This document shows, piece by piece, positions 1-11,690 of a stretch of DNA of 11,690 nt (position 1 is the stretch's first letter; every line of letters starts with the position of its first letter). The translations under genes and the position numbers were made by a program. The notes under the pieces are model-generated. The model searched no databases. It had not been told where the DNA came from and saw only the letters and a program-made list of their open reading frames with translations. This stretch comes from Burkholderiales bacterium (lineage in GTDB: Bacteria > Pseudomonadota > Gammaproteobacteria > Burkholderiales > Burkholderiaceae_D): the NCBI GenBank assembly GCA_028868455.1, contig JAGWUK010000037.1, positions 1 through 11,690 on the forward strand, read 5' to 3'.

Positions 1-2710
1 CGACTAATAAACCGGTGACAGCACCGATCAGGCAAAGTGGAATCGTGATAGCGATAATCAGCACTTTTCTGAACGATGAAAACTGCCACAGCATCAATAA
101 CAAAATTGATCCCAGCGCTATGGGTAAAAATTTGACCAGAGCACCCTGAGCATTTCCGGAAGTTTCCAACTCGCCTCCGACACCGATACGATATCCATCT
201 GGCAAAGTAATCTTTGCTATTTCTGGACGCATGCTTTTCACCAATGCAGATGCCGACATACTTAAGCTCTTTCCGGAAACGGTTACTGTGCGGACTCCGT
301 TGCGCCTACGGATAGCGCCGTCCTCCGGCACACCGATTAATTCCGCGATCTGCGTCAGCGGTACAGATACCTGGCCATTTGCTGAAAATACGTTCAGGGT
401 TTTCAGGCGGTCATAGGACATGGTTCCCTTGTCTTTTCCCAAAATGACAATCGGAATGGTCTGGTCCTTATCGCGAAATACACTGACTGCAATTCCACTC
501 AGCGCGCCGTTTAACGAAAGCGCAACGTCGGCAGAAGTAATTCCTGCACGTCGTGCCTTGGCCTGATCCACCCTCACCTGCAATTTCCATGTGCGATTTT
601 CCCAGTCATCTTTGACATCAACGGTATTGGGTAAACGACGCAATTGCAGCTTGACTTGTTCTGCCAGATTTTTGAGAACGGTTGCATCTTCGCCGGTAAT
701 ACGAAACTCGACCAAACCCGTTTCTGAACCACCCAACCAGAATTTCTTCACTTCCGCCCGCAATTCGGGAAAATTGGCGAACAGATAGTTCCTTGTTCGC
801 TCAAGAACGTCGTCAACCTTGGTGCCCAAAGGCAGATTGGCAACCACATACGCCCGATGCGGGGCAGCAGCAACAGGCGCCATCGCCAATACAAAACGCG
901 GCCCACCGTATCCCACATACGAAACAACACTGCTGATTTCTGGATTGGTTTGCCGATTGAGCAACCATGTATCGAGACGCTTAACGGCTTTTTCTGTTTC
1001 AACATAGGGTGACCCTGCCGGTAAATTGAGCAGTATCATGAATTGGTTACGTTCTGAATTGGGGAAAAATTGCTGCGGAACTTTACCAAATCCCATTAGG
1101 GCGATTACGAAAGCCGCACTCACAACTGCAAGAAACAGGAAAGGTCGCGACAATATCCATTCAAGCACATGCCGGTAGCCGCGATAAAAGCGCGTATCGT
1201 AATGCTCGTCGGATTCTGCCTTATGTGCAGTCGACGTCTTCATAAAGTGAAAACAAACCAGCGGGGTGAAAGTTAATGACAGCACCCATGAACTCAGCAC
1301 CGCAATACTGGTCACCTGCGCCAGCGAACGCACGTATTCACCGGTCTGATCATCTGCGAGCAGTAAAGGCATAAACGCAAACACAATCGTTAACGCAGAC
1401 GTTAACAAAGGCGTCGACAAACTTTTCCCCGCATTGATGCACGCCTGTTTTCTATCTTCTCCGGCGACAAAGCGCCGCATAATGTCTTCTGCAATCACAA
1501 TGCCATTGTCGACCAGGAGACCGAGAGCGATGATCATCGACGCGATTGATACACGCTGAAGCTCAATCCCCATCATGCTCATGATGATGAGCGTCATCAG
1601 CATCGTCAGAGGAACAATCGTGCCGACAATCAACCCGGTACGCATTCCGAGAAACAGCATAACGACCGCCAGCACGATCACTAATGTTTCGTACAGCGTG
1701 CGCTCGACTTCCGAAATCAAATGTGTGACGACCTCGGGTTGAAATGTCGCGAAATTCAACTGATAACCCAAAGGCAAAGTCGGCTTGATTTCCGCGATGC
1801 GCTCTTTCAGTCGTTTGCCAAAGTCGACAACATTACCGCCGTCAGCCATCGAAATTGCCAACACGATTGCAGGTTGATTGTTAAAAAATGCCCCTGTCGT
1901 ACGCGGTTCCACGTAAGCCCTGCGCAAGCTCAGTACGTCAGATAAAGCAATTGCCTGGCCCGTCTTGGGAATCAATATCGGTGTTTTCTCAATATCCGCC
2001 ATATCGGTAAAATTACCGGTGGGCTCTAAAGTCACAGTGACTTTATTAGCGATAATTTGCCCGCCAGGCAGCACCACGTTCTGTTTTTGCAAACTGTTCA
2101 ATACGTCAGCCAAAGACAAACCTAGATGTGACAATTGCGCTGGAGATCCTTCCAGATAAATACGTTCCGCCGGCAAACCATGTACTTCCACGCGACGTAC
2201 ACCACTTAACGCGGTAAGTTGGTCGCGCATTTTTAGCGCTACTTTGCGCATTTCTGCCATTGAATATCCATCAGCCGTGATTGCCAGGGTCGCAATCGCC
2301 ACATTGCCAAAATCGTCGTTGACGCTTGGACCACTTACGCCGTCGGGTAGAGCAGAACGCACATCTGACATTTTGTTACGCAATTTTTGCCACAGTGGCT
2401 CCAACTGAAAAAATTTGTCGTAGAGCTTGACGCTGATAATCGTTCCGCCAGTAAATGCTGTTGATGTAATTCTTTGCACTTCTGGTATTTCACGAATTTT
2501 TTCTTCCAAGGGGCGGGTCAATAATTGCTCCACGCGTTCCGGCGACATGCCGGGAAAATAAGCGCTGACAATCGCTTCCCGAACTTTGATTGGCGGATCT
2601 TCTTGCGCTGGATAGTTCAGAAAAAGGCTAATACCAAGACCGGTAATGATGGCAATACAGGCTATCAACAAACGTGGATTCTTAAATGCGTAGCCGGTGA
2701 AATTGATCAT
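1..2710 (-). CDS. RND efflux permease, AcrB-like (3' part beyond the window)
   Basis: This is the inner-membrane pump of a tripartite drug/metabolite efflux system, which uses the proton gradient to expel substrates through an adaptor and an outer-membrane channel. The reading frame is open from ATG 2710 to the left edge, about 903 codons of a family usually near 1030 residues, so the C-terminus is missing. Seen: a first transmembrane helix directly after the start (MINFTGYAFKNPRLLIACIA), a porter-domain segment EDPPIKVREAIV, the TM4 motif ALGLLVDNGIVIAEDI (about 1505-1545), and a later helix ITIPLCLIGAVTGLLV at the left edge. The second Asp of the usual AcrB TM4 pair (D407/D408) is Asn here. 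That is also known in other RND clades, so it is a subfamily mark and not damage. The frame agrees at the start, middle and end of the part checked. A modest AGGT ribosome site lies 7 bases upstream. It follows the adaptor gene after 99 bases and probably exports the product of the upstream enzymes. Confidence 0.95.
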   Translation of the reverse strand, partial: MINFTGYAFKNPRLLIACIAIITGLGISLFLNYPAQEDPPIKVREAIVSAYFPGMSPERVEQLLTRPLEEKIREIPEVQRITSTAFTGGTIISVKLYDKFFQLEPLWQKLRNKMSDVRSALPDGVSGPSVNDDFGNVAIATLAITADGYSMAEMRKVALKMRDQLTALSGVRRVEVHGLPAERIYLEGSPAQLSHLGLSLADVLNSLQKQNVVLPGGQIIANKVTVTLEPTGNFTDMADIEKTPILIPKTGQAIALSDVLSLRRAYVEPRTTGAFFNNQPAIVLAISMADGGNVVDFGKRLKERIAEIKPTLPLGYQLNFATFQPEVVTHLISEVERTLYETLVIVLAVVMLFLGMRTGLIVGTIVPLTMLMTLIIMSMMGIELQRVSIASMIIALGLLVDNGIVIAEDIMRRFVAGEDRKQACINAGKSLSTPLLTSALTIVFAFMPLLLADDQTGEYVRSLAQVTSIAVLSSWVLSLTFTPLVCFHFMKTSTAHKAESDEHYDTRFYRGYRHVLEWILSRPFLFLAVVSAAFVIALMGFGKVPQQFFPNSERNQFMILLNLPAGSPYVETEKAVKRLDTWLLNRQTNPEISSVVSYVGYGGPRFVLAMAPVAAAPHRAYVVANLPLGTKVDDVLERTRNYLFANFPELRAEVKKFWLGGSETGLVEFRITGEDATVLKNLAEQVKLQLRRLPNTVDVKDDWENRTWKLQVRVDQAKARRAGITSADVALSLNGALSGIAVSVFRDKDQTIPIVILGKDKGTMSYDRLKTLNVFSANGQVSVPLTQIAELIGVPEDGAIRRRNGVRTVTVSGKSLSMSASALVKSMRPEIAKITLPDGYRIGVGGELETSGNAQGALVKFLPIALGSILLLMLWQFSSFRKVLIIAITIPLCLIGAVTGLLV

Positions 2711-2809: not shown

Positions 2810-3940
2810 CTACAATCCGTTTGCGCCCAATGCTTTCACCAGTTGTCCATCGGACAGAAAAGCGACACCAGCGACGACAATGTCGTCGCCAGCTTTCAAA
2901 CCTTGATCGATTTCCAGATCGGTAGCGTCGACGGCTTTGATGTGCACCTCGACCCGTCGAACCTTACTTGATTTTCCGTCGAAAACAAATGCAAACCCGT
3001 GACCTGGTGCATTTCCAGGGACAATAGCCTGCATCGGCACCCTGACAATGGACGCGTGCAGTCCCGCGTTGTCCTGATTCGACGAAACAGCGAACTGGAC
3101 TTTTGCGGTCACGCCGGGTCGCATGCCACCGGTGTCTCCGAGAATAGTGATATAGCTGGGAAACGCATCTCCCGCGCCGGCGCGAGCATCAATGCGACTG
3201 ACAATGCCATCGAACTTACGTTCACCAATTTGTATTTTGACTTTATTGCCAATAGCAAAACCGAGCATTAATTTATCTGGCACGCGAATAGCAACGCGCA
3301 GTCCGGCGGCGCCATCCAGGCGCATCACTAACTGACCGGCATTGACATCAGTGAATGGCTCTATCATGCGCCCCGATATCAAACCATCTGCAGGGGCTCT
3401 GAGCATTGTGTATTCGAGATCACGCTTCGCCAGGGCGACAGCAGATTCGCTGTTACTAAAACGCATTTCAGCGGCCGCCACGTCTACTCTGAGTTTTTCC
3501 AGCATATTGCCGGTCATAAACCCCTGTTCTTTCAATGTCGTTTGCGCTGCCAATGCTTCGCGCTTTTCCTTGCGTTCACTGCTTGCGGTGAGCAAGCCCG
3601 CTTGCGCATTCTTTAGGTTTAGCTCGTAAGACATGGGGTCAAGTCTTGCCAGCAACTGCCCCTTGCTGACTTTATCGCCCTCATGGACTGAAATTTGTAT
3701 GACTCTGCCCTGTACCGAAAATGCCAGATTCCAGACTTCTGCCGGTTGTAACTCGCCAACCAGAGAACGCCACCTTTCTTCGCCGCCGGTTTGTGCTTTA
3801 ATTATTTTGACGCGTGGAACAATGTCGGATTGAATGACTTGATGTTTTTCGCTGCAGGCAGCCAACATCAATACAGGAAAAATCAAGAACACTAAACTGT
3901 AGTTTGGGAAGCTATTTCCCCTCGGGAACAATCCAGACAT
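2810..3940 (-). CDS. RND efflux membrane-fusion lipoprotein (HlyD/AcrA family)
   Basis: This is the periplasmic adaptor that links the RND permease to an outer-membrane channel. The protein has 376 residues from ATG 3940. It opens with a lipoprotein signal: a hydrophobic stretch, then lipobox LAAC with the lipidated Cys at residue 29, followed by SEKHQ. Next come a lipoyl/barrel-sandwich half (VQGRVIQISVHEGDKVSKGQLLARLDP), an alpha-helical hairpin (roughly residues 90-160, with LKNAQAGLL and KRDLEYTMLRAPADGLIS), the second lipoyl half (VNAGQLVMRLDG), and a C-terminal beta-barrel and membrane-proximal region (MRPGVTAKVQF, GDDIVVAGVAFLSDGQLV). A longer reading from GTG 3970 exists. I prefer ATG 3940 because GAGGT sits 4 bases upstream and because this start puts the signal peptide in the normal place. 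The gene starts 7 bases after the ACP stop, and its ribosome site overlaps that stop, so the two are probably translationally coupled. The outer-membrane channel gene is not in the window. Confidence 0.94.
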   Translation of the reverse strand: MSGLFPRGNSFPNYSLVFLIFPVLMLAACSEKHQVIQSDIVPRVKIIKAQTGGEERWRSLVGELQPAEVWNLAFSVQGRVIQISVHEGDKVSKGQLLARLDPMSYELNLKNAQAGLLTASSERKEKREALAAQTTLKEQGFMTGNMLEKLRVDVAAAEMRFSNSESAVALAKRDLEYTMLRAPADGLISGRMIEPFTDVNAGQLVMRLDGAAGLRVAIRVPDKLMLGFAIGNKVKIQIGERKFDGIVSRIDARAGAGDAFPSYITILGDTGGMRPGVTAKVQFAVSSNQDNAGLHASIVRVPMQAIVPGNAPGHGFAFVFDGKSSKVRRVEVHIKAVDATDLEIDQGLKAGDDIVVAGVAFLSDGQLVKALGANGL

Positions 3941-3944
3941 ACTG

Positions 3945-3949
3945 ACCTC
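3945..3949 (-). promoter_or_regulatory. Ribosome binding site of the adaptor gene (decides the start)
   Basis: The minus strand reads GAGGT, 4 bases before ATG 3940. It overlaps the TGA stop of the carrier-protein gene (3950-3948). This supports the internal ATG over the upstream GTG at 3970, which would make the two genes overlap by 23 bases and add ten residues before the lipoprotein signal. Confidence 0.7.
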
Positions 3950-4223
3950 ATTTCGGTGTATGTTTCTCACTGACCAGCGTAGCTACGTATCCGCATAATA
4001 AACGTATCGTCGGAAAATCCCAAGCAATGGTTGATTCAATTTCGATACCGAGCAAATTGTCCAGTTCAACAATCATGTCCATGACATTGATTGAATCCAG
4101 TCCCAGACTATTAAATGGTACATCTGGATCTATTTCGTTTGCGTCGATATTCAAGATCACAGCAATTCGCTCTACCAACCAGTCCTCTATTTGATATGCG
4201 CTCCAACTTTCCTGCGTTTTCAT
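3948..4223 (-). CDS. Free-standing acyl carrier protein
   Basis: This small acidic protein of 91 residues carries acyl groups as thioesters on a phosphopantetheine arm. The attachment site is plain: LGLDSINVMDM, with Ser44 as the modified residue. The rest fits the carrier-protein helical fold: helix 1 IEDWLVERIAVILNI, the DPDVPFNSLGLDS loop, a helix 2 IVELDNLLGIEIES of the kind recognised by partner enzymes, then FPTIRLLCGYVATLV. It lies 21 bases downstream of the acyl-AMP ligase gene. In known FAAL systems this is the usual arrangement, with the ligase passing its acyl-adenylate to the adjacent ACP. A secondary-metabolite ACP is far more likely than the housekeeping AcpP, given the neighbours and the divergent sequence. 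No phosphopantetheinyl transferase gene is in the window. Confidence 0.93.
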   Translation of the reverse strand: MKTQESWSAYQIEDWLVERIAVILNIDANEIDPDVPFNSLGLDSINVMDMIVELDNLLGIEIESTIAWDFPTIRLLCGYVATLVSEKHTPK

Positions 4224-4244: not shown

Positions 4245-6023
4245 TCATTCTTTATTTTTGCATTCCGCCGATGTTGGACGTTTTCTGATTACGTCAGATA
4301 ACGCGCAATAGCTAAGGCGATTTTGACCATAGCTGGTTTTTCCGCTGGTTGTTTTATGTATTCCCATCGGGCCGACGAAGCGAATATGACTGATAGTGAT
4401 TTCTGCACTTGCTACAGCAACCCTGATTTTCAATGCAAGTTGCTCCAGTTCCGGGCTGACAAATAATTCATCGCTGGCAGAAAACAAATGCCGGGCAGCA
4501 CGCCCCAACTCACAAAAAACTACGATACTTTCGCTTTTTGCGTCGGCACGGTCATAGGCAAACACAGCAACGTCTTCGATTCCACTGACGGCATGCTGTA
4601 TCAGCTCTTCGATATCATGTGGGTAGATATTGCGACCGTTAACAATTAACAATTCTTTACTGCGACCTGTCACATAAAGCTGACCGTCGACAATCGCGCC
4701 GATATCGCCTGTGACCAAGAATCTTGGTGTTGGCTGACCTTCGATGTACGCATGAAACGTGGACTGACTTTGTGTTTCATCGCGAAAATAAGCGCTGGGC
4801 ACGCTTGGCCCGCTTACCCATATTTCACCCACATTGCCATCGGCCAATACGCGCCGTGATTGCGCCTCGACGATGCGAATGCGTCCGGAATCTGCGTGGC
4901 CGCTCGAAACGAGTAAGCGTGTATCGTCGTCCGATATGGGGGGCGAAATATGTCCTTGTTCCAAGCCAAAAATGGAAACGGCACAAACGACAGGATCATG
5001 ATTTCCTGTCGCAAATAAAGTCGTCTCTGCCAAACCATAGCAAGTCAATATATTTTTTCCAGAAAACCCAGCGTCGCTGAAACGTTCAGCAAACCCACGT
5101 ATCGTTTGTGCCCGGATTGGCTCCGCACCATTGAACGCAGTTTTCCAACGTTGCAAAGACAATGCCGGAATATCTTCAGCAGCTACCCGGTCAATGCACA
5201 GTTGATATGCAAAATTCGGTCCGCCCGCCATTACGCTACGACCAGCATCTTGTTCAGAAATAATTTGCAGCCAACGAACCGGGCGCTTGATGAATGCAGA
5301 CGGCGCCATGCTGACACAAGGAATGCCTGCATGAATTGGTGTCAGCAAACTACCGATCAATCCCATGTCGTGGTAGTGAGGCAACCAGCTCACCATAGTA
5401 AATTCCGGGTTCATCCGGAATGCTTTATAGATCAACGCCAAATTGGCCATCAGATTGGCCTGCGTGACGACAACCCCCTTCGGCAAGCTGGTTGAACCTG
5501 ATGTGTATTGGATGAAGGCAATGTCCTGAGTGCCAGGGCTATTTAATCCAGACTCTGCATCACCGATATTTTTTAATTCTTCTATGGCGAACAACTGCAT
5601 GGTCGCCAGCGTTGTACTGGAATCGAACACATCCTTCAGTCTGGCAATTTCATTCGACGTGGTCATTGTTCTTGCAGCACCGCAATTCGCGACGATCGCC
5701 TCCAAAATATGTGCAGACCGGCCGCGCCGTGGCATCGCAACTGGGATGGCAACGATGCCCGCCATCTGACAAGCTAAAAAGGCCTGTATAAAATCCAGTC
5801 CAGGCGAAAATGCCAGAATCAACATGCGAGGGTGAATCGTATCCCACGACAGCGTAAGCAGGCCTTTAGCGATGCGTTCACTTTCGTCATGCAGCTGAAG
5901 CCAGCTTAAATTTTCTCGCTGCTCTTGCGAACGTTCAGGCACCCAGGTCATTGCTGGCATTTCCGGCGTGCGCGCTACATGGGCGCGAAATATGTCTATC
6001 AGTTGTGGAGTGGAATTCATCAT
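4245..6023 (-). CDS. Fatty acyl-AMP ligase (FAAL)
   Basis: This enzyme activates a fatty acid with ATP to an acyl-adenylate and hands it to a carrier protein, typically to start a lipopeptide or polyketide. The 592-residue length is normal for the family. Seen: ATP-binding loop YTSGSTSLPKG (residues 173-183), the FAAL-typical WLPHYHDMGLIG (213-224), NGAEPIRAQT, the CYGLAETTLFATG adenine-binding motif, YVTGRSKELLIVNGRN followed by IYPHDIE at the domain hinge, and the C-terminal catalytic Lys in KTTSGKTSYGQN. WLPxxHDMGLIG and the hinge form separate FAALs from fatty acyl-CoA ligases and NRPS adenylation domains. The chain length of the substrate cannot be read from the sequence. The start is ATG 6023, with a second ATG directly after it at 6020. 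Neither has a good ribosome site, so translation may depend on coupling to the monooxygenase gene ending 17 bases upstream. The partner is almost certainly the ACP just downstream. Confidence 0.94.
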   Translation of the reverse strand: MMNSTPQLIDIFRAHVARTPEMPAMTWVPERSQEQRENLSWLQLHDESERIAKGLLTLSWDTIHPRMLILAFSPGLDFIQAFLACQMAGIVAIPVAMPRRGRSAHILEAIVANCGAARTMTTSNEIARLKDVFDSSTTLATMQLFAIEELKNIGDAESGLNSPGTQDIAFIQYTSGSTSLPKGVVVTQANLMANLALIYKAFRMNPEFTMVSWLPHYHDMGLIGSLLTPIHAGIPCVSMAPSAFIKRPVRWLQIISEQDAGRSVMAGGPNFAYQLCIDRVAAEDIPALSLQRWKTAFNGAEPIRAQTIRGFAERFSDAGFSGKNILTCYGLAETTLFATGNHDPVVCAVSIFGLEQGHISPPISDDDTRLLVSSGHADSGRIRIVEAQSRRVLADGNVGEIWVSGPSVPSAYFRDETQSQSTFHAYIEGQPTPRFLVTGDIGAIVDGQLYVTGRSKELLIVNGRNIYPHDIEELIQHAVSGIEDVAVFAYDRADAKSESIVVFCELGRAARHLFSASDELFVSPELEQLALKIRVAVASAEITISHIRFVGPMGIHKTTSGKTSYGQNRLSYCALSDVIRKRPTSAECKNKE

Positions 6024-6039
6024 GAGCGATAAGAACGGA

Positions 6040-6984
6040 CTAGGATAACGTGTTCAGTTTTGATAAGCCGAACATTTCTGCAAGCGCAAGCATCGCATTG
6101 CGCTTACGCTGAGCAAGATGCCACATGTGATAAATGATCAGATTGTCGGCTTGGTAGCGCTCCTGAATTGCCAGCAGTTGATCGCGGCATTCTTCAGGCG
6201 TGCCACAGATATTTACGCGCATGGTATTGCCTATCCAGGTTTCGACTTGCTGCTTTTGGGACTGCGCCTCGGCGGCAGACTCAGCACAGACACAACTCAA
6301 TGCTACAGCGACGTGTGATCGGTTCTTACCGGAATGGTAGTTCTCATAATGCTCACGATATGCGCGCGTAATAGCGGCATCCTGAGTACTGGCGCGATGA
6401 AATAATGAATAGGCATACGTCGCCGAAGATTTTGCTGCCAATTCAGCCGTTCCAAATCCTGAGCCCATCACCCAAAGCGGAGGCCGTTCTGCAAAGCACG
6501 GCGTTGCCCCTTGTGCAAAGCGATGTCCGTCTGGAAAATCGCCGTCCAGATAGCGCACTAAGTCGTTCAATTTGGTCGAGAAATGTTTTGTCACCGTCGC
6601 AGCTGCATCGCTGTTGCCTGTCAGCGCAGCCAGCGCAACAACGTCTGCCGGAACACCGCCACAGACACCCAGCGCGACACGGCCTCCGGACAAGGCAGCA
6701 AGACCTCGATAATTTTCGGCAACAGCCAACGGGCTATAAAGCGGTAGCAATACCGCAGCAGATCCAAGACCGATTCGCTGCGTTGTCTTTGCCAGCGCCG
6801 CCAACATCATTTCCGGCGCAGTCCAGCAAAAATGTGATTCATGATGCTCCGCCAGCCACAAGCGTTCATACCCGAGCTGGTCAGCAAGCCGGGCTAACTC
6901 AAAAGTTTGCGCTAACACGTCCTGCCCTCGCTGGCCTGGGGCAATAATACCGAGATCAAGCAATGACAAACTCAAGCCACTCAT
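6040..6984 (-). CDS. Luciferase-like flavin-dependent monooxygenase (LLM class)
   Basis: This is a TIM-barrel oxygenase of the bacterial-luciferase superfamily. Such enzymes use reduced FMN (or F420 in some branches) and oxygen to hydroxylate or oxidise a substrate. The protein has 314 residues. Seen: N-terminal strand LSLLDLGI, helix ARLADQLGYERLWLAEHHES (residues 31-50) with the family AEHH, IGLGSAAVLLPLYSPLAVAE (71-90), LSGGRVALGVCGG (98-110), and the phosphate-loop region LWVMGSGFGTAELAA (170-184). The C-terminal part has the usual GTPEECRDQL element. The pattern is close to LLM enzymes found in natural-product clusters. The sequence does not show whether it acts on a carrier-bound amino acid, an acyl chain or the free product. 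The start ATG overlaps the upstream TGA (ATGA at 6984-6981), and GGAG stands 7 bases before it. A separate reductase gene to supply reduced flavin is not visible. Confidence 0.92.
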   Translation of the reverse strand: MSGLSLSLLDLGIIAPGQRGQDVLAQTFELARLADQLGYERLWLAEHHESHFCWTAPEMMLAALAKTTQRIGLGSAAVLLPLYSPLAVAENYRGLAALSGGRVALGVCGGVPADVVALAALTGNSDAAATVTKHFSTKLNDLVRYLDGDFPDGHRFAQGATPCFAERPPLWVMGSGFGTAELAAKSSATYAYSLFHRASTQDAAITRAYREHYENYHSGKNRSHVAVALSCVCAESAAEAQSQKQQVETWIGNTMRVNICGTPEECRDQLLAIQERYQADNLIIYHMWHLAQRKRNAMLALAEMFGLSKLNTLS

Positions 6985-8003
6985 ACGGATACTCCAAAGG
7001 GAATTGTTTCAGGATCAGGGTCCACGGCGCTGTAAGTATTCCAAAACAGGACACGTCGTCCTGCCAGATTTTTTGCCCTGAACATCGCCAGAGTTTTCGC
7101 AATATAGGTCGTCTCCGTACGAAAATCGCTACATTCTGCAACGTCTCTGGCAGCTTGTTCGGCACCAGCGTTTGTTTGCCCGTATCCCGGCGCCGCAAAT
7201 TCGTCAATCCACAGTATTTCGCCAAACTTTGGTTGTCCGCGATACCCCGCCCGTCTTAACATCTCCAGCGTTTTCATTGCGAGTTTTTTCATTTTTGATA
7301 TGCCAGTAATCATCATCGGCACCATGCGCACTGCGACGATGCGTATAGGCATGTCTGCCATTGCCAGACCAAGCCATAAACCAGCCGCCGTGGCACAGGT
7401 GCCTGTTGGGACAACAATGTCATCGGGCTGACGCAGCTCGCCATTTCTGATCGATGCAACAATTTCGAGTGCCCCTTCAATCACACCAAGCACACCAATC
7501 GGATGATGAGATCCCGGCGGTATCCAATATGGTCGCTTGTCCTGATGCCGTCTATAGCGAATGCGTAAAAAACCAAGTGGCACATCGATAAAGCGCTCGC
7601 AACGGATGAACTCCATGTTCAGTGATGGTAATAAACGCTGGTTCAGCGCCGCTTCATGCACGTTCGGCTGCGGTGTCAGCAACGCGCGGGTATGCAAACC
7701 GTGCAGACGTCCAAAAGTCGCTGTCGCCAAAACCTGATGACTACCAAGCGGCCCCATTGTCGCAACACAATCTGCACCTTTTGCTAAAGCATCGCCAAAA
7801 AAATATTCGAGATTCCTCACCTTGCTTCCCCCGTAGACAGGAGAAGACAGGTCATCTCTTTTTATCCATAATTCCTGCAAATCCCAACGCTCCGCAAGAC
7901 TCTTTTCCTGTGTCAGCGGTGTTGGGCGAACAACCAGATCGACTGGTCTGATCAGGCTTTCCAGTCCGGGCACCATCGTCGACAATAATCTTGGCGGACT
8001 CAT
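6981..8003 (-). CDS. PLP enzyme, D-cysteine desulfhydrase / ACC deaminase family
   Basis: This is a fold-type II pyridoxal-phosphate enzyme of 340 residues. Seen: PTPL and WIKRDDLSSPVYGGSKVRNLE, where Lys61 is the expected Schiff-base lysine. GPLGSHQVLATATFGRLHGL follows with Ser88, 27 residues after the Lys, which is the Lys51-Ser78 spacing I recall for ACC deaminase. Next come YWIPPGSHHPIGVLG and the phosphate-binding loop PTGTCATAAG (199-208). Known members release ammonia from D-cysteine, ACC or L-cysteate. The usual C-terminal HTGG-like end is replaced by FWNTYSAVDP, so the substrate may differ. An ATG at 8003 overlaps the upstream TGA (ATGA, 8003-8000), with GGAG 5 bases before it. A longer reading from 8072 would overlap the previous gene by 73 bases and is unlikely. 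Lying next to a cysteine-predicted NRPS module, it may make or modify a sulfur amino acid, or supply an unusual building block; this is inference. Confidence 0.88.
   Translation of the reverse strand: MSPPRLLSTMVPGLESLIRPVDLVVRPTPLTQEKSLAERWDLQELWIKRDDLSSPVYGGSKVRNLEYFFGDALAKGADCVATMGPLGSHQVLATATFGRLHGLHTRALLTPQPNVHEAALNQRLLPSLNMEFIRCERFIDVPLGFLRIRYRRHQDKRPYWIPPGSHHPIGVLGVIEGALEIVASIRNGELRQPDDIVVPTGTCATAAGLWLGLAMADMPIRIVAVRMVPMMITGISKMKKLAMKTLEMLRRAGYRGQPKFGEILWIDEFAAPGYGQTNAGAEQAARDVAECSDFRTETTYIAKTLAMFRAKNLAGRRVLFWNTYSAVDPDPETIPFGVSV
6992..6995 (-). promoter_or_regulatory. Ribosome binding site of the monooxygenase gene
   Basis: GGAG on the minus strand, 7 bases before ATG 6984. It lies inside the end of the PLP-enzyme gene, so the monooxygenase can be reached both by re-initiation at the ATGA overlap and by fresh ribosomes. 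Confidence 0.55.
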
Positions 8004-9232
8004 GCGTGCTCCGGTGGTGTTTGCGATACGGGGCTTAAACAGGACAAGTCGTATTCCAATGCAGCAAAGCACGAGGTCTTGCTGCGATCCAGATAGGCTT
8101 GCAAACGCGGCTCCAGCTCACCGTAGCTTGCAAGCCTTTGTAACAAACGCGGAAGAACCTGCTGGAGACAAGCCAGCATCACCAGAGATGGGTTACGGTA
8201 TTCTGCTTCCACATCGGCGACTGCCCCCAACATAAAATGACGAATGGTTTTGGTCAGGTCAGAAAATGCCGCCATCAGCATTTCCATCAATGCGCTGTCT
8301 GTACCGACTTCGGACATGGCAACGATGGAGCCAAGATCAACAAAACCTCCATCAATTACGGCATTCTGCATCTCTAGACAATGTCCTATGCCGATATGTT
8401 CAGTACGCCCCGGCAAATAACCGAGCGCCAGGATTCGTGCCACCAGATCAATCCAGCGCTCGATGACGATTTCCGGGTCTTTCGTCAACGCTTTCAGCCT
8501 GTGCAGCCATGTCCCGCTGCCAAAGCGCTTTAGCTCGACAGGCAGATGCGCGACGCGGATCGGCACGCTGGGGTAATGGTAAATGACGACAGCCAGACCT
8601 TCCGCAGTTGCACTTTCAACGATGCGCAAAGCCCGTCCTGACAGTAATTCCCGTAACGCCAGAAGATGCTCATCGCGTGCGGTCATAGGCCATTGCAGTA
8701 CGAGCAAGGGGGTAGGAATGCGCGCCAGTTCGCCGAAGCGTAGTACGTGCGCTTGTTGCAATTGCGCTGCAGCGCGGGCATCTTCGACCGCCTCAAATGC
8801 GCTGACAGCCAGCGGAATTTTTTGCTCTACCAGCGCGAAATGTTCCAGTGCAGAGAATAAGGACTTTCCTCGCAGAGGATAATCGACACGAAATTCTGCT
8901 AATCCCTTTAAATGCTGATCACGATCACTGGCATAAATTTCTGTTCCCTTGAAAGCAAATACGCCGGCCGCAGGATTGGATGCTGGCGCAATGGTTTGAT
9001 AAAACGCACGTAAATGCCGATACGGGCGCTGCATATCGCCGGACTGAAACGGATTGATCGTATCTGCACAAGGAACTGCAGCACGTAAAGCAGTCAGGCG
9101 CTGCGCCAGATCCGGGATGACGGCTGATAGCGCGACGTTTAATGTTTCTGCGTCTTTTTCAATATCCCATAAAACGCGTTCAACGGCGCGATGTGCTCTT
9201 ACGTGCTGAACATTTTCTTTTTGCGTATTCAT
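8000..9232 (-). CDS. Divergent SelO/YdiU-like (pseudokinase-fold) protein
   Basis: I do not know this protein by name. The 410 residues contain, in order, elements that line up with the SelO/YdiU family, whose members use an atypical kinase fold to transfer AMP to proteins. FAFKGTE (Lys95) corresponds to the SelO LQLKGxG lysine. A helix LFSALEHF (Glu130) is a candidate for the paired Glu. VPIRVA (Arg226) and KRFG (Arg236) resemble SelO LTRVA...LRFG. DLVAR (262-266) resembles DVVAR. HCLEMQN...GGFVDLGS places Asn290 and Asp299 nine residues apart, the spacing of the SelO metal-binding Asn and Asp in NTDN...DYG. The SelO Asp just before that Asn is Gln289 here, so chemistry may be altered or lost. 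It is shorter than SelO (about 480). There is no signal peptide or membrane segment. The start ATG overlaps the NRPS stop (ATGA, 9232-9229), and the ribosome site is weak. The family call rests on motif reading from memory; HipA- or APH-like kinase folds are the alternatives. Confidence 0.6.
   Translation of the reverse strand: MNTQKENVQHVRAHRAVERVLWDIEKDAETLNVALSAVIPDLAQRLTALRAAVPCADTINPFQSGDMQRPYRHLRAFYQTIAPASNPAAGVFAFKGTEIYASDRDQHLKGLAEFRVDYPLRGKSLFSALEHFALVEQKIPLAVSAFEAVEDARAAAQLQQAHVLRFGELARIPTPLLVLQWPMTARDEHLLALRELLSGRALRIVESATAEGLAVVIYHYPSVPIRVAHLPVELKRFGSGTWLHRLKALTKDPEIVIERWIDLVARILALGYLPGRTEHIGIGHCLEMQNAVIDGGFVDLGSIVAMSEVGTDSALMEMLMAAFSDLTKTIRHFMLGAVADVEAEYRNPSLVMLACLQQVLPRLLQRLASYGELEPRLQAYLDRSKTSCFAALEYDLSCLSPVSQTPPEHA
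8009..8012 (-). promoter_or_regulatory. Ribosome binding site of the PLP-enzyme gene (decides the start)
   Basis: GGAG on the minus strand, 5 bases before ATG 8003 and within the end of the SelO-like gene. With the ATGA overlap it supports a start at 8003 instead of the in-frame ATG at 8072. Confidence 0.6.
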
Positions 9233-11690
9233 ACGTTCGCCGATCCCGGTTTGCGCAATTCTTTTAAACGCTGCAATCCGCTTTTTCGCAAATCACGCCG
9301 GGCGAGATTTTGGCGAGCCTCGCCTTCCGCATCGAGCATGGCCGACAGGCTGGCATAGCTGACTGTGCAATCAGCAGCAACCTGTTTCAGGACATCGGAG
9401 AATTCGCGCACCATATTCTCCGCCGTTGCCTGGGTAAATAATTCGGTACTGAACTCCAGCGTCGCACGCATTGGCGACTCGTCCAACACAGTCAGTAACA
9501 AATCATACTTGGCTGTATCGGTATGCAGATCAATCGGATGAATAGAAAAATGCTGACTTTGCATTTGCGCCAGCGGTGCATTCTGCAAAACAAATTTATG
9601 CTGGAACAGCGGCATACCGCCAGCGTCTCTGGACGGATTTAATTCCTGCACCAGTGCATCAAATGGTAAATGCTGATGGAAATATGCCTGAAGGCAGCTT
9701 TGCCTGACTTGCTCAAGCATGTCAGAAAAACTGGCGCAGGCAGAATAATGCGTTCGTAATACCAGTTGATTGACGAAAAATCCTTGAATTTTTTCAGCCA
9801 GGGGATGATCACGCCCTGCGATATCCGTGCCAACGACAATTTCATCTTGCCCAGAGCGATGTCTGAGAACGACTTCAAATGCCGTCAACATCAACATGAA
9901 TAAGGTGACCGATTGCTGTCTGGCAACGCGCCGCAACATTACCGACAATTGCTCATCCAGTACAAAGCTGATGCGAGCTCCGGCATACAAACTTGGTGCC
10001 TGCCGTGGAAAATCGGTCGGTAAATGCAGTCGCGGCAAATTGGCCAATTGCTGCTTCCAGTAAAGCATTTCCGGCGCCTGATATTTTTCTTCAACCAATT
10101 GTTCATGCCAGGCAGAAAAATCCGCATATTGAAGTGCCGGAACCATATCTGGAATCGCCGGGAGCGGCTGTCTGACAGCATCGTAAGCCGCCAGCAACTC
10201 CTCTGCAAATAATGCAATAGACCACCCATCTGTCGCAATATGGTGCATCACGATCAAAACAAAAACTTGCTGGTCATCCGTTCGCAGCAGATTGATCCGC
10301 AATGGTCGCTGCTGCTCCAGATCAAACGGAATGCAGGCAAGCTCTTTGATACGGCCAAGTATCTGTGTTTCGTCCAAATAAAGATGGCGCAGATCATCCA
10401 TGTTCAGCACCGAGGCGATGTCTGTATCAACCAGCATTAGCATAGCCAGTTCGCCAGAATGGCTTATTCGCAGATTAAAAATTTCATGCCGCGATATGAC
10501 TTGCTGCGCAGCCAGACTAAAGGCATTCAGGTCGACATCTCCTGTCAATTTCGCTGCCAGTGCGACGTTATAATTTGCGCTATCGCGTTCCAGTTGATGC
10601 AAAAAATAAAGACGTGATTGTGCGCGGGACAAACGAACGCCTTGCGTTCTGTCCACGATGGGTAAAGATAATTCCTGTCCGTTCGCATCCCCGGTCGCCA
10701 AGTTCCGGATGGCAGCCGACAAGGCATGTAATGTCGTATGCTCGAAAATCAGTCTAAGTGGCAAATCAATACCAATGGCAACGCGTAACCTGGCCATGAC
10801 CGATGTCGCACGCAGCGAATGCCCTCCGAGCGAAAAAAAATCATCTCCGCTATGCACGTGCTCAATACCAAGTACCTCGCACCAGGCCGCTGCAACGATA
10901 TCCTGTAAAGCATCTTTATTCGAATGTACGGAAAAATTTTGGGCATTTTTCCGTTCGGGTAATGGCAGATTTTTTCTGTCCACCTTTCCATTGACAGAAA
11001 CTGGCAAACTATCGAGGCGGATCAGGAACGACGGGAGCATATTGACCGGCAGATTTTTTGCCAGATATTGCTGATACGCTTCCGTACTTAAATTTTCGCC
11101 ATGCTGAAGTACAAAATACCCTATCAGCTCCTTATCCGATTGCCCCGATGCCGGCCCTGATGTCGATGGGTCGTACACAATACAGATCGCGTCTTTGATC
11201 GCGGGATGCCTGTTCATCGCGACTTCTATGTCGCCCAGCTCAACCCGGAAACCGCGTATTTTCACTTGATTGTCGAGTCGTCCCAAAAACTCCATGACAC
11301 CATCGGGGAAAAATTTTGCTCTGTCACCAGTGCGATACATACGCGCGCCTTGCGTGCCAGGCGGCGCATAAGGATCAGGAATAAAACGTTCCGCGGTTAA
11401 TTGTGGTTCGCCCACATATCCCTCTGCCAGACAATCACCGCCAATGTACAAATCCCCGGCAACACCAACGGGAACGGCTTGCAGGGCTGAATCCAAAATA
11501 TAATAACGCGCATTTTGAATTGGTCGCCCGTAAGGAATACTGACCCACTCAGATTGAACTTGTTGAACAATATAGTAATTCGACCAGATAGTTGCCTCGG
11601 TAGCACCTCCCAAGGCAACGACACAGACATCCGGGAATGCGGCTTTCAATTTATCCGGAAGCGCTAATGGTATCCAGTCACCACTTAAAA
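9229..11690 (-). CDS. NRPS C-terminal part: A (partial, Cys-predicted) - PCP - C (terminal)
   Basis: Modular peptide synthetase, open at the right edge; 819 residues are visible. The adenylation domain begins near motif A4/A5 (LSGDWIPLALP, GGATEATIWSN) and continues with GDLYIGGDCLAEGY, MYRTGDRAKFFPDG, GRLDNQVKIRGFRVELGDIE and the A10 Lys in NGKVDRK (residue 235). Aligned to GrsA PheA numbering, specificity positions 301, 322, 330 and 331 are Ser, Leu, Ile and Trp, matching the end of the known cysteine code DLYNLSLIW. The carrier domain has DDFFSLGGHSLRATS with Ser291 as the phosphopantetheine site. The condensation domain (about 350-790) has LSRAQSRLYFL, active-site HHIATDG (482-488), AGRDHPLAEKIQGFFVNQLVLR and LPFDALVQEL. 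The intact HHxxxDG marks an active condensation, not a heterocyclisation (DxxxxD), domain. The chain ends about 30 residues after it, with no further A domain, carrier or thioesterase. It must therefore pass its intermediate to another protein or a free amine. The TTG at 11649 is internal, not a start. Confidence 0.95.
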   Translation of the reverse strand, partial: LSGDWIPLALPDKLKAAFPDVCVVALGGATEATIWSNYYIVQQVQSEWVSIPYGRPIQNARYYILDSALQAVPVGVAGDLYIGGDCLAEGYVGEPQLTAERFIPDPYAPPGTQGARMYRTGDRAKFFPDGVMEFLGRLDNQVKIRGFRVELGDIEVAMNRHPAIKDAICIVYDPSTSGPASGQSDKELIGYFVLQHGENLSTEAYQQYLAKNLPVNMLPSFLIRLDSLPVSVNGKVDRKNLPLPERKNAQNFSVHSNKDALQDIVAAAWCEVLGIEHVHSGDDFFSLGGHSLRATSVMARLRVAIGIDLPLRLIFEHTTLHALSAAIRNLATGDANGQELSLPIVDRTQGVRLSRAQSRLYFLHQLERDSANYNVALAAKLTGDVDLNAFSLAAQQVISRHEIFNLRISHSGELAMLMLVDTDIASVLNMDDLRHLYLDETQILGRIKELACIPFDLEQQRPLRINLLRTDDQQVFVLIVMHHIATDGWSIALFAEELLAAYDAVRQPLPAIPDMVPALQYADFSAWHEQLVEEKYQAPEMLYWKQQLANLPRLHLPTDFPRQAPSLYAGARISFVLDEQLSVMLRRVARQQSVTLFMLMLTAFEVVLRHRSGQDEIVVGTDIAGRDHPLAEKIQGFFVNQLVLRTHYSACASFSDMLEQVRQSCLQAYFHQHLPFDALVQELNPSRDAGGMPLFQHKFVLQNAPLAQMQSQHFSIHPIDLHTDTAKYDLLLTVLDESPMRATLEFSTELFTQATAENMVREFSDVLKQVAADCTVSYASLSAMLDAEGEARQNLARRDLRKSGLQRLKELRKPGSANV

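What the first reader, a model, noticed from the sequence alone, without database searches (positions are those of the whole stretch)
8000..9232. SelO/YdiU-like protein encoded inside an NRPS operon
The 410-residue protein keeps, in the right order, most landmarks of the SelO pseudokinase family: FKG Lys95, RVA Arg226, RFG Arg236, DLVAR 262-266, and Asn290/Asp299 with the same nine-residue spacing as SelO. It is tied by ATGA overlaps to an NRPS gene on one side and a PLP-enzyme gene on the other. SelO proteins are normally solitary, conserved, redox-linked protein AMPylators. A shortened, diverged copy locked into a metabolite pathway could be an ATP-using tailoring enzyme (adenylation or phosphorylation of the intermediate), or could AMPylate a pathway protein such as a carrier. 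I know of no described NRPS pathway that uses one.
Basis: partly seen in the sequence, partly recalled or inferred. Interest (0 to 1): 0.82.

Follow-up and report, generated by a model that had tools for sequence, protein, structure and literature searches.

The report
SelO-fold enzyme in assembly-line operons
A gene inside a bacterial peptide-making operon encodes an uncharacterised enzyme with the fold of SelO, a kinase-like protein that attaches AMP to other proteins; the relatives whose surroundings could be read also sit beside peptide or polyketide assembly lines, so it probably uses ATP to finish a small molecule.

Summary

In 101 aligned sequences Lys95, Arg226, Asn290 and Asp299 are invariant. 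By profile the family lies nearer to MchC, the SelO-related microcin-maturation protein (score 32, P 0.004; SelO 24.5, P 0.04), and shares its N-x3-D-x4-D and R-x2-H spacing. Neither profile link is conclusive.

All 11 loci read abut an NRPS (10) or a PKS (1).

Best reading: an undescribed SelO/MchC-clan family dedicated to NRPS/PKS products, using ATP to activate a group on the product or a bound intermediate, most likely a carboxylate. Activity and substrate are untested. MchC is known prior art; use in NRPS/PKS operons was not seen in the held papers I searched.

The parts
8000..9232 (-). SelO-fold, MchC-like protein, 410 aa (the finding)
8948..8950 (-). codon of Lys95 (KG motif; aligned with the SelO LKGAG lysine)
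   Evidence: 101 of 101 Lys; hhalign pairing in a non-significant alignment; codon position counted by hand
8555..8557 (-). codon of Arg226 (R-x2-H motif; compare MchC RPAH, SelO RVA)
   Evidence: 101 of 101 Arg; His229 99 of 101; pairing with SelO/MchC is my motif reading; position counted by hand
8336..8365 (-). Asn290-x3-Asp294-Gly-Gly-x2-Asp299: catalytic-loop Asn and DFG-like Asp
   Evidence: N290 and D299 101 of 101, D294 100 of 101; same spacing of N, D, D in 7 of 7 MchC proteins; position counted by hand
9229..11690 (-). NRPS, C-terminal part A-T-C; runs off the window (and off the contig)
   Evidence: Pfam AMP-binding, PP-binding, Condensation; full-length relatives in L005 and L008 are C-A-T-C
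6981..8003 (-). PLP-dependent enzyme of the D-cysteine desulfhydrase / ACC deaminase-like group
   Evidence: scanned with nine extra upstream residues: PF00291 E 1.5e-23; TIGR01275 132 bits, below its 289-bit cut-off
6040..6984 (-). luciferase-like (LLM class) flavin monooxygenase, MsnO8 family
   Evidence: TIGR03558 212 bits, above its cut-off of 167
4245..6023 (-). fatty acyl-AMP ligase (FAAL)-like enzyme
   Evidence: PF00501 E 2.1e-52; FAAL models among the best NCBIfam hits, below their cut-offs
3948..4223 (-). free-standing acyl carrier protein
   Evidence: PF00550 E 6.9e-17
2810..3970 (-). RND efflux periplasmic adaptor (start codon uncertain)
   Evidence: TIGR01730 195.6 bits, above cut-off
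2..2710 (-). RND-type efflux pump, incomplete at the window end
   Evidence: ORF; named from its sequence and from its place after the adaptor, not profile-scanned here

Best explanation
The protein belongs to an undescribed family of the SelO/MchC branch of protein-kinase-like enzymes that works in NRPS and PKS pathways. SHOWN (computationally): SelO-type fold; invariant Lys/Arg/Asn/Asp kinase-like residues under purifying selection; translational coupling to the NRPS; assembly-line neighbours in all 11 loci read. INFERRED: it binds ATP and metal and transfers a nucleotidyl (AMP) group, less likely a phosphoryl group, to the pathway product or a carrier-bound intermediate. My most likely acceptor is a carboxylate (about 0.4 within this reading), giving an acyl-adenylate that is then captured to make an amide or ester. 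Reasons: SelO's proposed general base (Asp252) is absent both here and in MchC, MchC's pathway forms a bond at a C-terminal carboxylate, and the next-best structural matches are NIS synthetases, which adenylate carboxylates (recalled). Next most likely is a hydroxyl (about 0.25 within this reading), such as one made by the TauD-type hydroxylase or the PKS ketoreductase of these clusters. The confidence given is for the whole reading, whichever acceptor.
Against: No significant Pfam, NCBIfam or PDB sequence match. hhalign against SelO is weak (probability 1.3%, P 0.04), and against MchC it is suggestive only (probability 9%); a single MchC sequence scores 23.8 and is beaten by 2 of 60 shuffles. 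Foldseek TM-scores are low (0.37 for the best YdiU row) and a pseudokinase and Rio1 rank beside YdiU. For the second subfamily Foldseek alone ranks eukaryotic kinases first and a YdiU entry sixth, none with E <= 0.001. rmsd is large (4.2-4.4 A, 4.6-6.2) and identity 10-12%. No MchD-like acyltransferase, the partner of MchC, was seen in these clusters. Residue pairing with SelO comes from motifs and a non-significant alignment, because no coordinates could be superposed. The second subfamily's context rests on one locus. No activity, ligand or product is known.
Confidence: 0.6

Rival explanations
1. A variant inside the main reading: it nucleotidylates a hydroxyl on the carrier-bound chain, and the AMP then serves as a leaving group (dehydration, cyclisation, or decarboxylative elimination by the thioesterase).
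For: Each cluster type has a hydroxyl-making step and a thioesterase: TauD and TE by Pfam in L005 and L008, KR and TE in L039. The reduced Mucilaginibacter cluster shows TauD and this gene as its only tailoring genes in the locus read. SelO modifies hydroxyls (PMC8017715, passages).
Against: SelO's proposed general base is missing here. Only two cluster types were seen, and hydroxyl-making enzymes are common in such clusters.
Confidence: 0.2
2. It AMPylates a pathway protein (carrier protein, NRPS or hydroxylase) and so regulates the line, as SelO does with redox proteins.
For: SelO fold. Direct coupling to the NRPS gene.
Against: Natural-product chemistry (MchC), not regulation, is the role of the nearest profile relative. 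The gene is present even in the reduced cluster, which suggests a chemical step.
Confidence: 0.1
3. It is a self-protection enzyme that inactivates the product by phosphorylation or AMPylation, like kinase-fold antibiotic phosphotransferases.
For: Kinase-like fold; efflux genes in the same operon.
Against: In nine of the ten NRPS-type loci further biosynthetic genes follow it in the same direction, Mucilaginibacter being the exception; no match to APH families.
Confidence: 0.1
4. It is a catalytically dead scaffold that keeps the kinase fold.
For: The SelO catalytic Asp position is not conserved.
Against: Ten charged, glycine or amide residues are unchanged in 101 of 101 sequences, unlike a decaying active site.
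Confidence: 0.08

Closest known systems
MchC / MceJ, microcin H47 and E492 maturation proteins (described as a distant SELO subfamily, PMC3281104)
   Same: SelO clan; antibiotic biosynthesis; no Asp before the catalytic Asn; N-x3-D-x4-D and R-x2-H spacing (7 of 7 MchC); best profile score of the families compared
   Different: MchC acts with the HlyC-like MchD to join a siderophore to a ribosomal microcin. Here no MchD-like gene or microcin precursor was seen but an NRPS or PKS. The seven MchC proteins read are 451-562 aa against 410 aa here.
SelO / YdiU protein adenylyltransferase (PF02696)
   Same: Fold; K, R, N, D landmarks
   Different: No Pfam match; 11-12% structural identity; Asp252 equivalent not kept and no Arg183 equivalent identified; assembly-line context, with a canonical SelO elsewhere in the host
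NIS synthetases (IucA/IucC; SbnC, AcsD)

Membership tests
SelO (PF02696) | profile match to the curated family | tested here: not met
   no SelO hit at E <= 1 for the window protein nor at E <= 0.1 for any of 36 family members
SelO (PF02696) | SelO-type kinase-like fold | tested here: met
SelO (PF02696) | metal-binding Asn253 and Asp262, nine residues apart | tested here: met
   N290 and D299, 101 of 101; paired with SelO by hhalign in a non-significant alignment
SelO (PF02696) | Lys113-Glu136 ion pair | tested here: inconclusive
   K95 101 of 101; the Glu partner may be E130 (98 Glu, 3 Asp) or E136 (101 of 101); hhalign is one column off
SelO (PF02696) | catalytic base Asp252 | tested here: not met
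   position 289 is Q 74, K 22, N 2, W 2, M 1 of 101
SelO (PF02696) | two phosphate-binding Arg (176, 183; numbers recalled) | tested here: inconclusive
   R226 invariant; R236 not conserved; pairing not settled without coordinates
SelO (PF02696) | AMP transfer to protein Ser/Thr/Tyr | not testable with these tools
   needs purified protein
MchC (SELO subfamily) | profile similarity | tested here: inconclusive
   score 32, P 0.004, probability 9%; above 40 of 40 shuffles for each of two masters; single sequence not significant
MchC (SELO subfamily) | N-x3-D-x4-D loop and R-x2-H spacing (R-P-A-H in MchC) | tested here: met
   loop: N and second D 101 of 101, first D 100 of 101; R 101 and H 99 of 101; the P-A in between is not kept
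MchC (SELO subfamily) | adjacent HlyC-like acyltransferase (MchD) | tested here: not met
   annotated beside MchC in 6 of 7 records read (Salinivibrio has only hypothetical proteins there); no such gene seen in the ORF lists of the family's loci, which were read by eye and only partly profile-scanned
NIS synthetase (PF04183) | profile match | tested here: not met
   no Pfam hit; hhalign 14.8 against reversed control 20.0
APH / protein kinase (Pfam) | profile match | tested here: not met
   no hit at E <= 1 for the window protein; none among 36 members at E <= 0.1

The most novel reading that the evidence does not exclude
A SelO-fold nucleotidyltransferase family has become a regular tailoring enzyme of NRPS and PKS assembly lines: it adenylates a carboxylate or hydroxyl of the growing or released small molecule, either to drive amide, ester or alkene formation or to leave an AMP-bearing product. 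That would be small-molecule chemistry by an enzyme clan known mainly for modifying proteins and RNA.
Probability: 0.45. Interest if true: 0.82.

Novelty: new variant of a known kind. Interest (0 to 1): 0.62.

Why it matters
SelO-clan enzymes are known as protein AMPylators and UMPylators, as a viral RNA-capping relative (NiRAN; passages), and as one microcin-maturation branch of unsettled chemistry (MchC; passages). An undescribed branch tied to NRPS and PKS operons would make small-molecule substrates for this fold directly testable. It would give a handle on how MchC/MceJ works, and it marks two uncharacterised biosynthetic cluster types.

Tried and rejected
Tried without result: sequence search of the PDB with one sequence and with a 56-row profile (none); Pfam scan of 36 members (five families, each in one member, best E 0.011); hhalign to SelO with 30 sequences (P 0.09) and with 53 sequences (P 0.04), although 24.5 exceeds the best of 60 shuffles (23.9) and the reversed control (15.2); hhalign to a single MchC sequence (23.8, beaten by 2 of 60 shuffles; SelO against that single sequence 18.0). 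The UniRef name 'DUF1704 domain-containing' on one homologue, P0015, has no Pfam support.

Rejected: a recent copy of the host's SelO (host SelO intact at G000:C136, 462 bits; profile link weak). Rejected: chance ORF (100 homologues aligned, dN/dS 0.06-0.10). Rejected as main reading: NIS synthetase.

Searches for context: A2 in 399 genomes of the order, 1 hit, the window's own; genus, 7 of 43, own included; A4 in 392 genomes of the family, 7 hits, all in the genus; A4 in 301 genomes of the Mucilaginibacter family, 1 hit, itself; tblastn of three family members against 72,556 plasmid records, the same single B. stagnalis record each time. A DNA search meant to find a Burkholderia handle gave no listed match above 70% identity in 385 genomes, so the second subfamily's context rests on one locus. 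NRPS1 was not found at high identity elsewhere in the fragmented host genome (a 30% hit and the window's own NRPS).

Papers, as searched: SelO with nonribosomal and BGC terms (3 papers; two checked by passage, one being the surname Selosse and the other a co-expression hit; the third, PMC13430161, seen in the listing only); SelO with pseudokinase and AMPylation (46 papers, 30 listed); active-site terms (3 papers); kinase-like with natural-product terms (34 papers, 20 listed); interface-domain terms (13, 10 listed); Niveispirillum/FAAL/TauD terms (3); YdiU/UPF0061 with NRPS terms (4,267 papers, 15 listed); citramalate/AsnB/Burkholderia PKS (none); MchC (54, 12 listed); MceIJ (57, 10 listed). 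No SelO-like protein in an NRPS or PKS pathway was seen in these listings or passages; the lists were capped and most subscription papers are not held.
Full report
OBSERVATION. The ORF at 8000-9232 is on the minus strand, 410 aa. The NRPS stop and this ATG overlap as ATGA at 9229-9232, and its own stop overlaps the ATG of the PLP enzyme. Downstream in the same direction lie an LLM-class flavin monooxygenase, a FAAL-like ligase, an ACP and an RND exporter.

SEQUENCE. No Pfam match but a chance LRRK2 repeat (E 0.16), no NCBIfam match but a chance one (E 0.082), no PDB sequence at E <= 10. The first protein search gave 56 proteins, one of them the window's own at 99%; the profile search gave 58, three of them new; a search with the Burkholderia stagnalis protein gave 42 of a second subfamily. 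That protein was reached through a plasmid-collection search (34.6% identity). In an alignment of 101 sequences (P0001 and the half-length P0059 left out; the window and the Mucilaginibacter protein added) the following are 101 of 101: W22, R69, H73, R75, K95, G96, E98, E136, K138, Q159, Y218, Y220, R226, N290, G295, G296, D299. D294 and C285 are 100, H229 is 99.

PROFILE COMPARISONS. Against 53 SelO sequences: score 24.5, P 0.04, probability 1.3%; reversed control 15.2; best of 60 shuffles 23.9; IucA/IucC 14.8, with its reversed control at 20.0. In that weak alignment K95 pairs with the LKGAG lysine, N290 with N253 and D299 with D262; SelO's E136 falls one column from E130 (numbering and recall).

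PRIOR ART. Dudkiewicz et al. 2012 (PMC3281104, passages) describe MchC, needed for microcin H47 maturation, as a distant SELO subfamily. [quoted passage not shown] ATP use by MceIJ is my recollection. A survey of canonical SelO neighbourhoods (PMC10364804, passages) points to oxidative stress, translation and transport, and its main text holds neither 'NRPS' nor 'biosynthe-'. I fetched mchC of E. coli Nissle and six homologues. Two of three homologues scanned (Vibrio and Photobacterium, not Salinivibrio) match PF02696 (31.2 and 30.5 bits); the E. coli MchC does not. The seven-sequence MchC profile scores 31.8 or 32.3 against our family (P 0.0036-0.0037, probability 9%), above all 40 shuffles for either master (best 22.3 and 23.5). 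SelO against MchC, the positive control, gives 96%. A single MchC sequence scores 23.8 and is beaten by two of 60 shuffles. MchC is invariant in the seven at N281, D285, D290 and R200-P-A-H203 (Vibrio numbering): the same spacing as N290, D294, D299 and R226, H229. Both lack an Asp before the Asn, where SelO has its proposed base, D252 (PMC8017715, passage). So the family sits in the SelO clan by fold, nearer MchC by motif and profile, but the profile evidence alone does not settle membership.

CONTEXT. Ten NRPS-type loci: the window; L002-L005 (three named Undibacterium and a Burkholderiales MAG that ties to a genome of the same genus); L006 (Beijerinckiaceae MAG); L007 (Niveispirillum irakense); L008 (Mucilaginibacter phyllosphaerae); L080 and L054 (two more genomes of the genus). 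In all ten the gene follows NRPS2 directly. The upstream NRPS1 was seen in the nine other loci, and a 334-399 aa gene before it in L002-L008, TauD by Pfam in the three scanned (L005, L007, L008). Pfam gives NRPS1 as (weak C)-A-T-TE and NRPS2 as C-A-T-C in L005 and L008; the window has A-T-C. In L002-L004, L006 and L007 domains were read by motif only: the pattern for the second HHxxxDG of NRPS2 was not found in L006 and L007, and the TE pattern only in L008. L054 and L080 were read by ORF size and start only. The degenerate N-terminal domain of NRPS1 (no HHxxxDG there by pattern except a late, doubtful one in L006) beside a TauD hydroxylase recalls the 'interface' domains of siderophore beta-hydroxylase systems (Reitz 2019, not held; cited in passages). 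My hand reading of the A domains is DLYDFSLIW (L005) and DLYDFSLVW (L008) for NRPS2 (Cys-like; recalled code), and DAWQCGLVQ (L005) and DAWQFGLIQ (L008) for NRPS1 (Gln-like). The eleventh locus, L039, has amidohydrolase, citramalate synthase, AsnB, this gene, then a PKS (FAAL-ACP-KS-AT-DH-KR-ACP-TE) after 28 bases. So 11 of 11 loci abut an assembly line, in five lineages; seven of the eleven belong to one genus.

DISTRIBUTION. Patchy: 7 of 43 genomes of the genus, own included, and no new genus in 399, 392 and 301 sampled genomes. Canonical SelO is in 52 of 60 genomes searched, own included. Of the eight genomes or records behind the named loci, five have a SelO match (one of them partial) and three do not: Niveispirillum, Mucilaginibacter and the B. 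stagnalis record, which is one replicon only. The family is therefore not tied to SelO.

MECHANISM. Shown by computation: fold, conserved kinase-like residues, constraint, operon position. Inferred: ATP and metal binding, and nucleotidyl transfer. I favour a carboxylate acceptor because a carboxylate needs no general base (the missing Asp252), MchC's pathway forms a bond at a carboxylate, and the next structural neighbours activate carboxylates (recalled). A hydroxyl acceptor is the main rival, because each cluster type has a hydroxyl-making enzyme and a thioesterase.

VERDICT. Real, rare, and not described in the papers found, but in a clan with one known antibiotic-maturation branch: a new variant of a known kind.

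Noticed in passing
L039:10102-25463 (Burkholderia stagnalis): A PKS cluster with citramalate synthase, AsnB-like amidotransferase and amidohydrolase next to the SelO-fold gene; one paper search found no description.
   Followed up: partly
L008:563-11254 (Mucilaginibacter phyllosphaerae): A reduced version of the cluster: TauD, NRPS1, NRPS2 and the SelO-fold gene, with no PLP, LLM, FAAL or ACP genes seen in the following 10 kb; the nearest route to the core function.
   Followed up: partly
NRPS1 N-terminus, e.g. L005:1237-5220: A weak, degenerate condensation-like domain without HHxxxDG beside a TauD hydroxylase; possibly an interface domain acting on a Gln-like residue.
   Followed up: partly
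G018:C26, G026:C1, G031:C69, G434:C1 (L101-L104): In 4 of 7 Undibacterium genomes with the gene, the nearer of two IucA/IucC-type siderophore genes lies about 16-22 kb from it; TonB-receptor, MFS and LacI-type genes nearby are named from sequence only.
   Followed up: partly
window:2-3970 and loci L002-L005, L054, L080: The exporter after the ACP varies: RND in the window and L004; RND then an ABC-type ORF in L005; an ABC-type ORF with no RND gene before it in L002, L003, L054 and L080 (names from sequence).
   Followed up: no
P0043, P0044: Two homologue clusters with 347 and 40 member sequences and an N-terminal extension, close in the alignment to a Burkholderia ubonensis protein; their genomes were not identified.
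   Followed up: no
L110, L111: In Photobacterium and Vibrio plasmids the MchC-type gene sits between an acyltransferase and a family 2 glycosyltransferase gene; no microcin gene is annotated in the ~3 kb shown.
   Followed up: no
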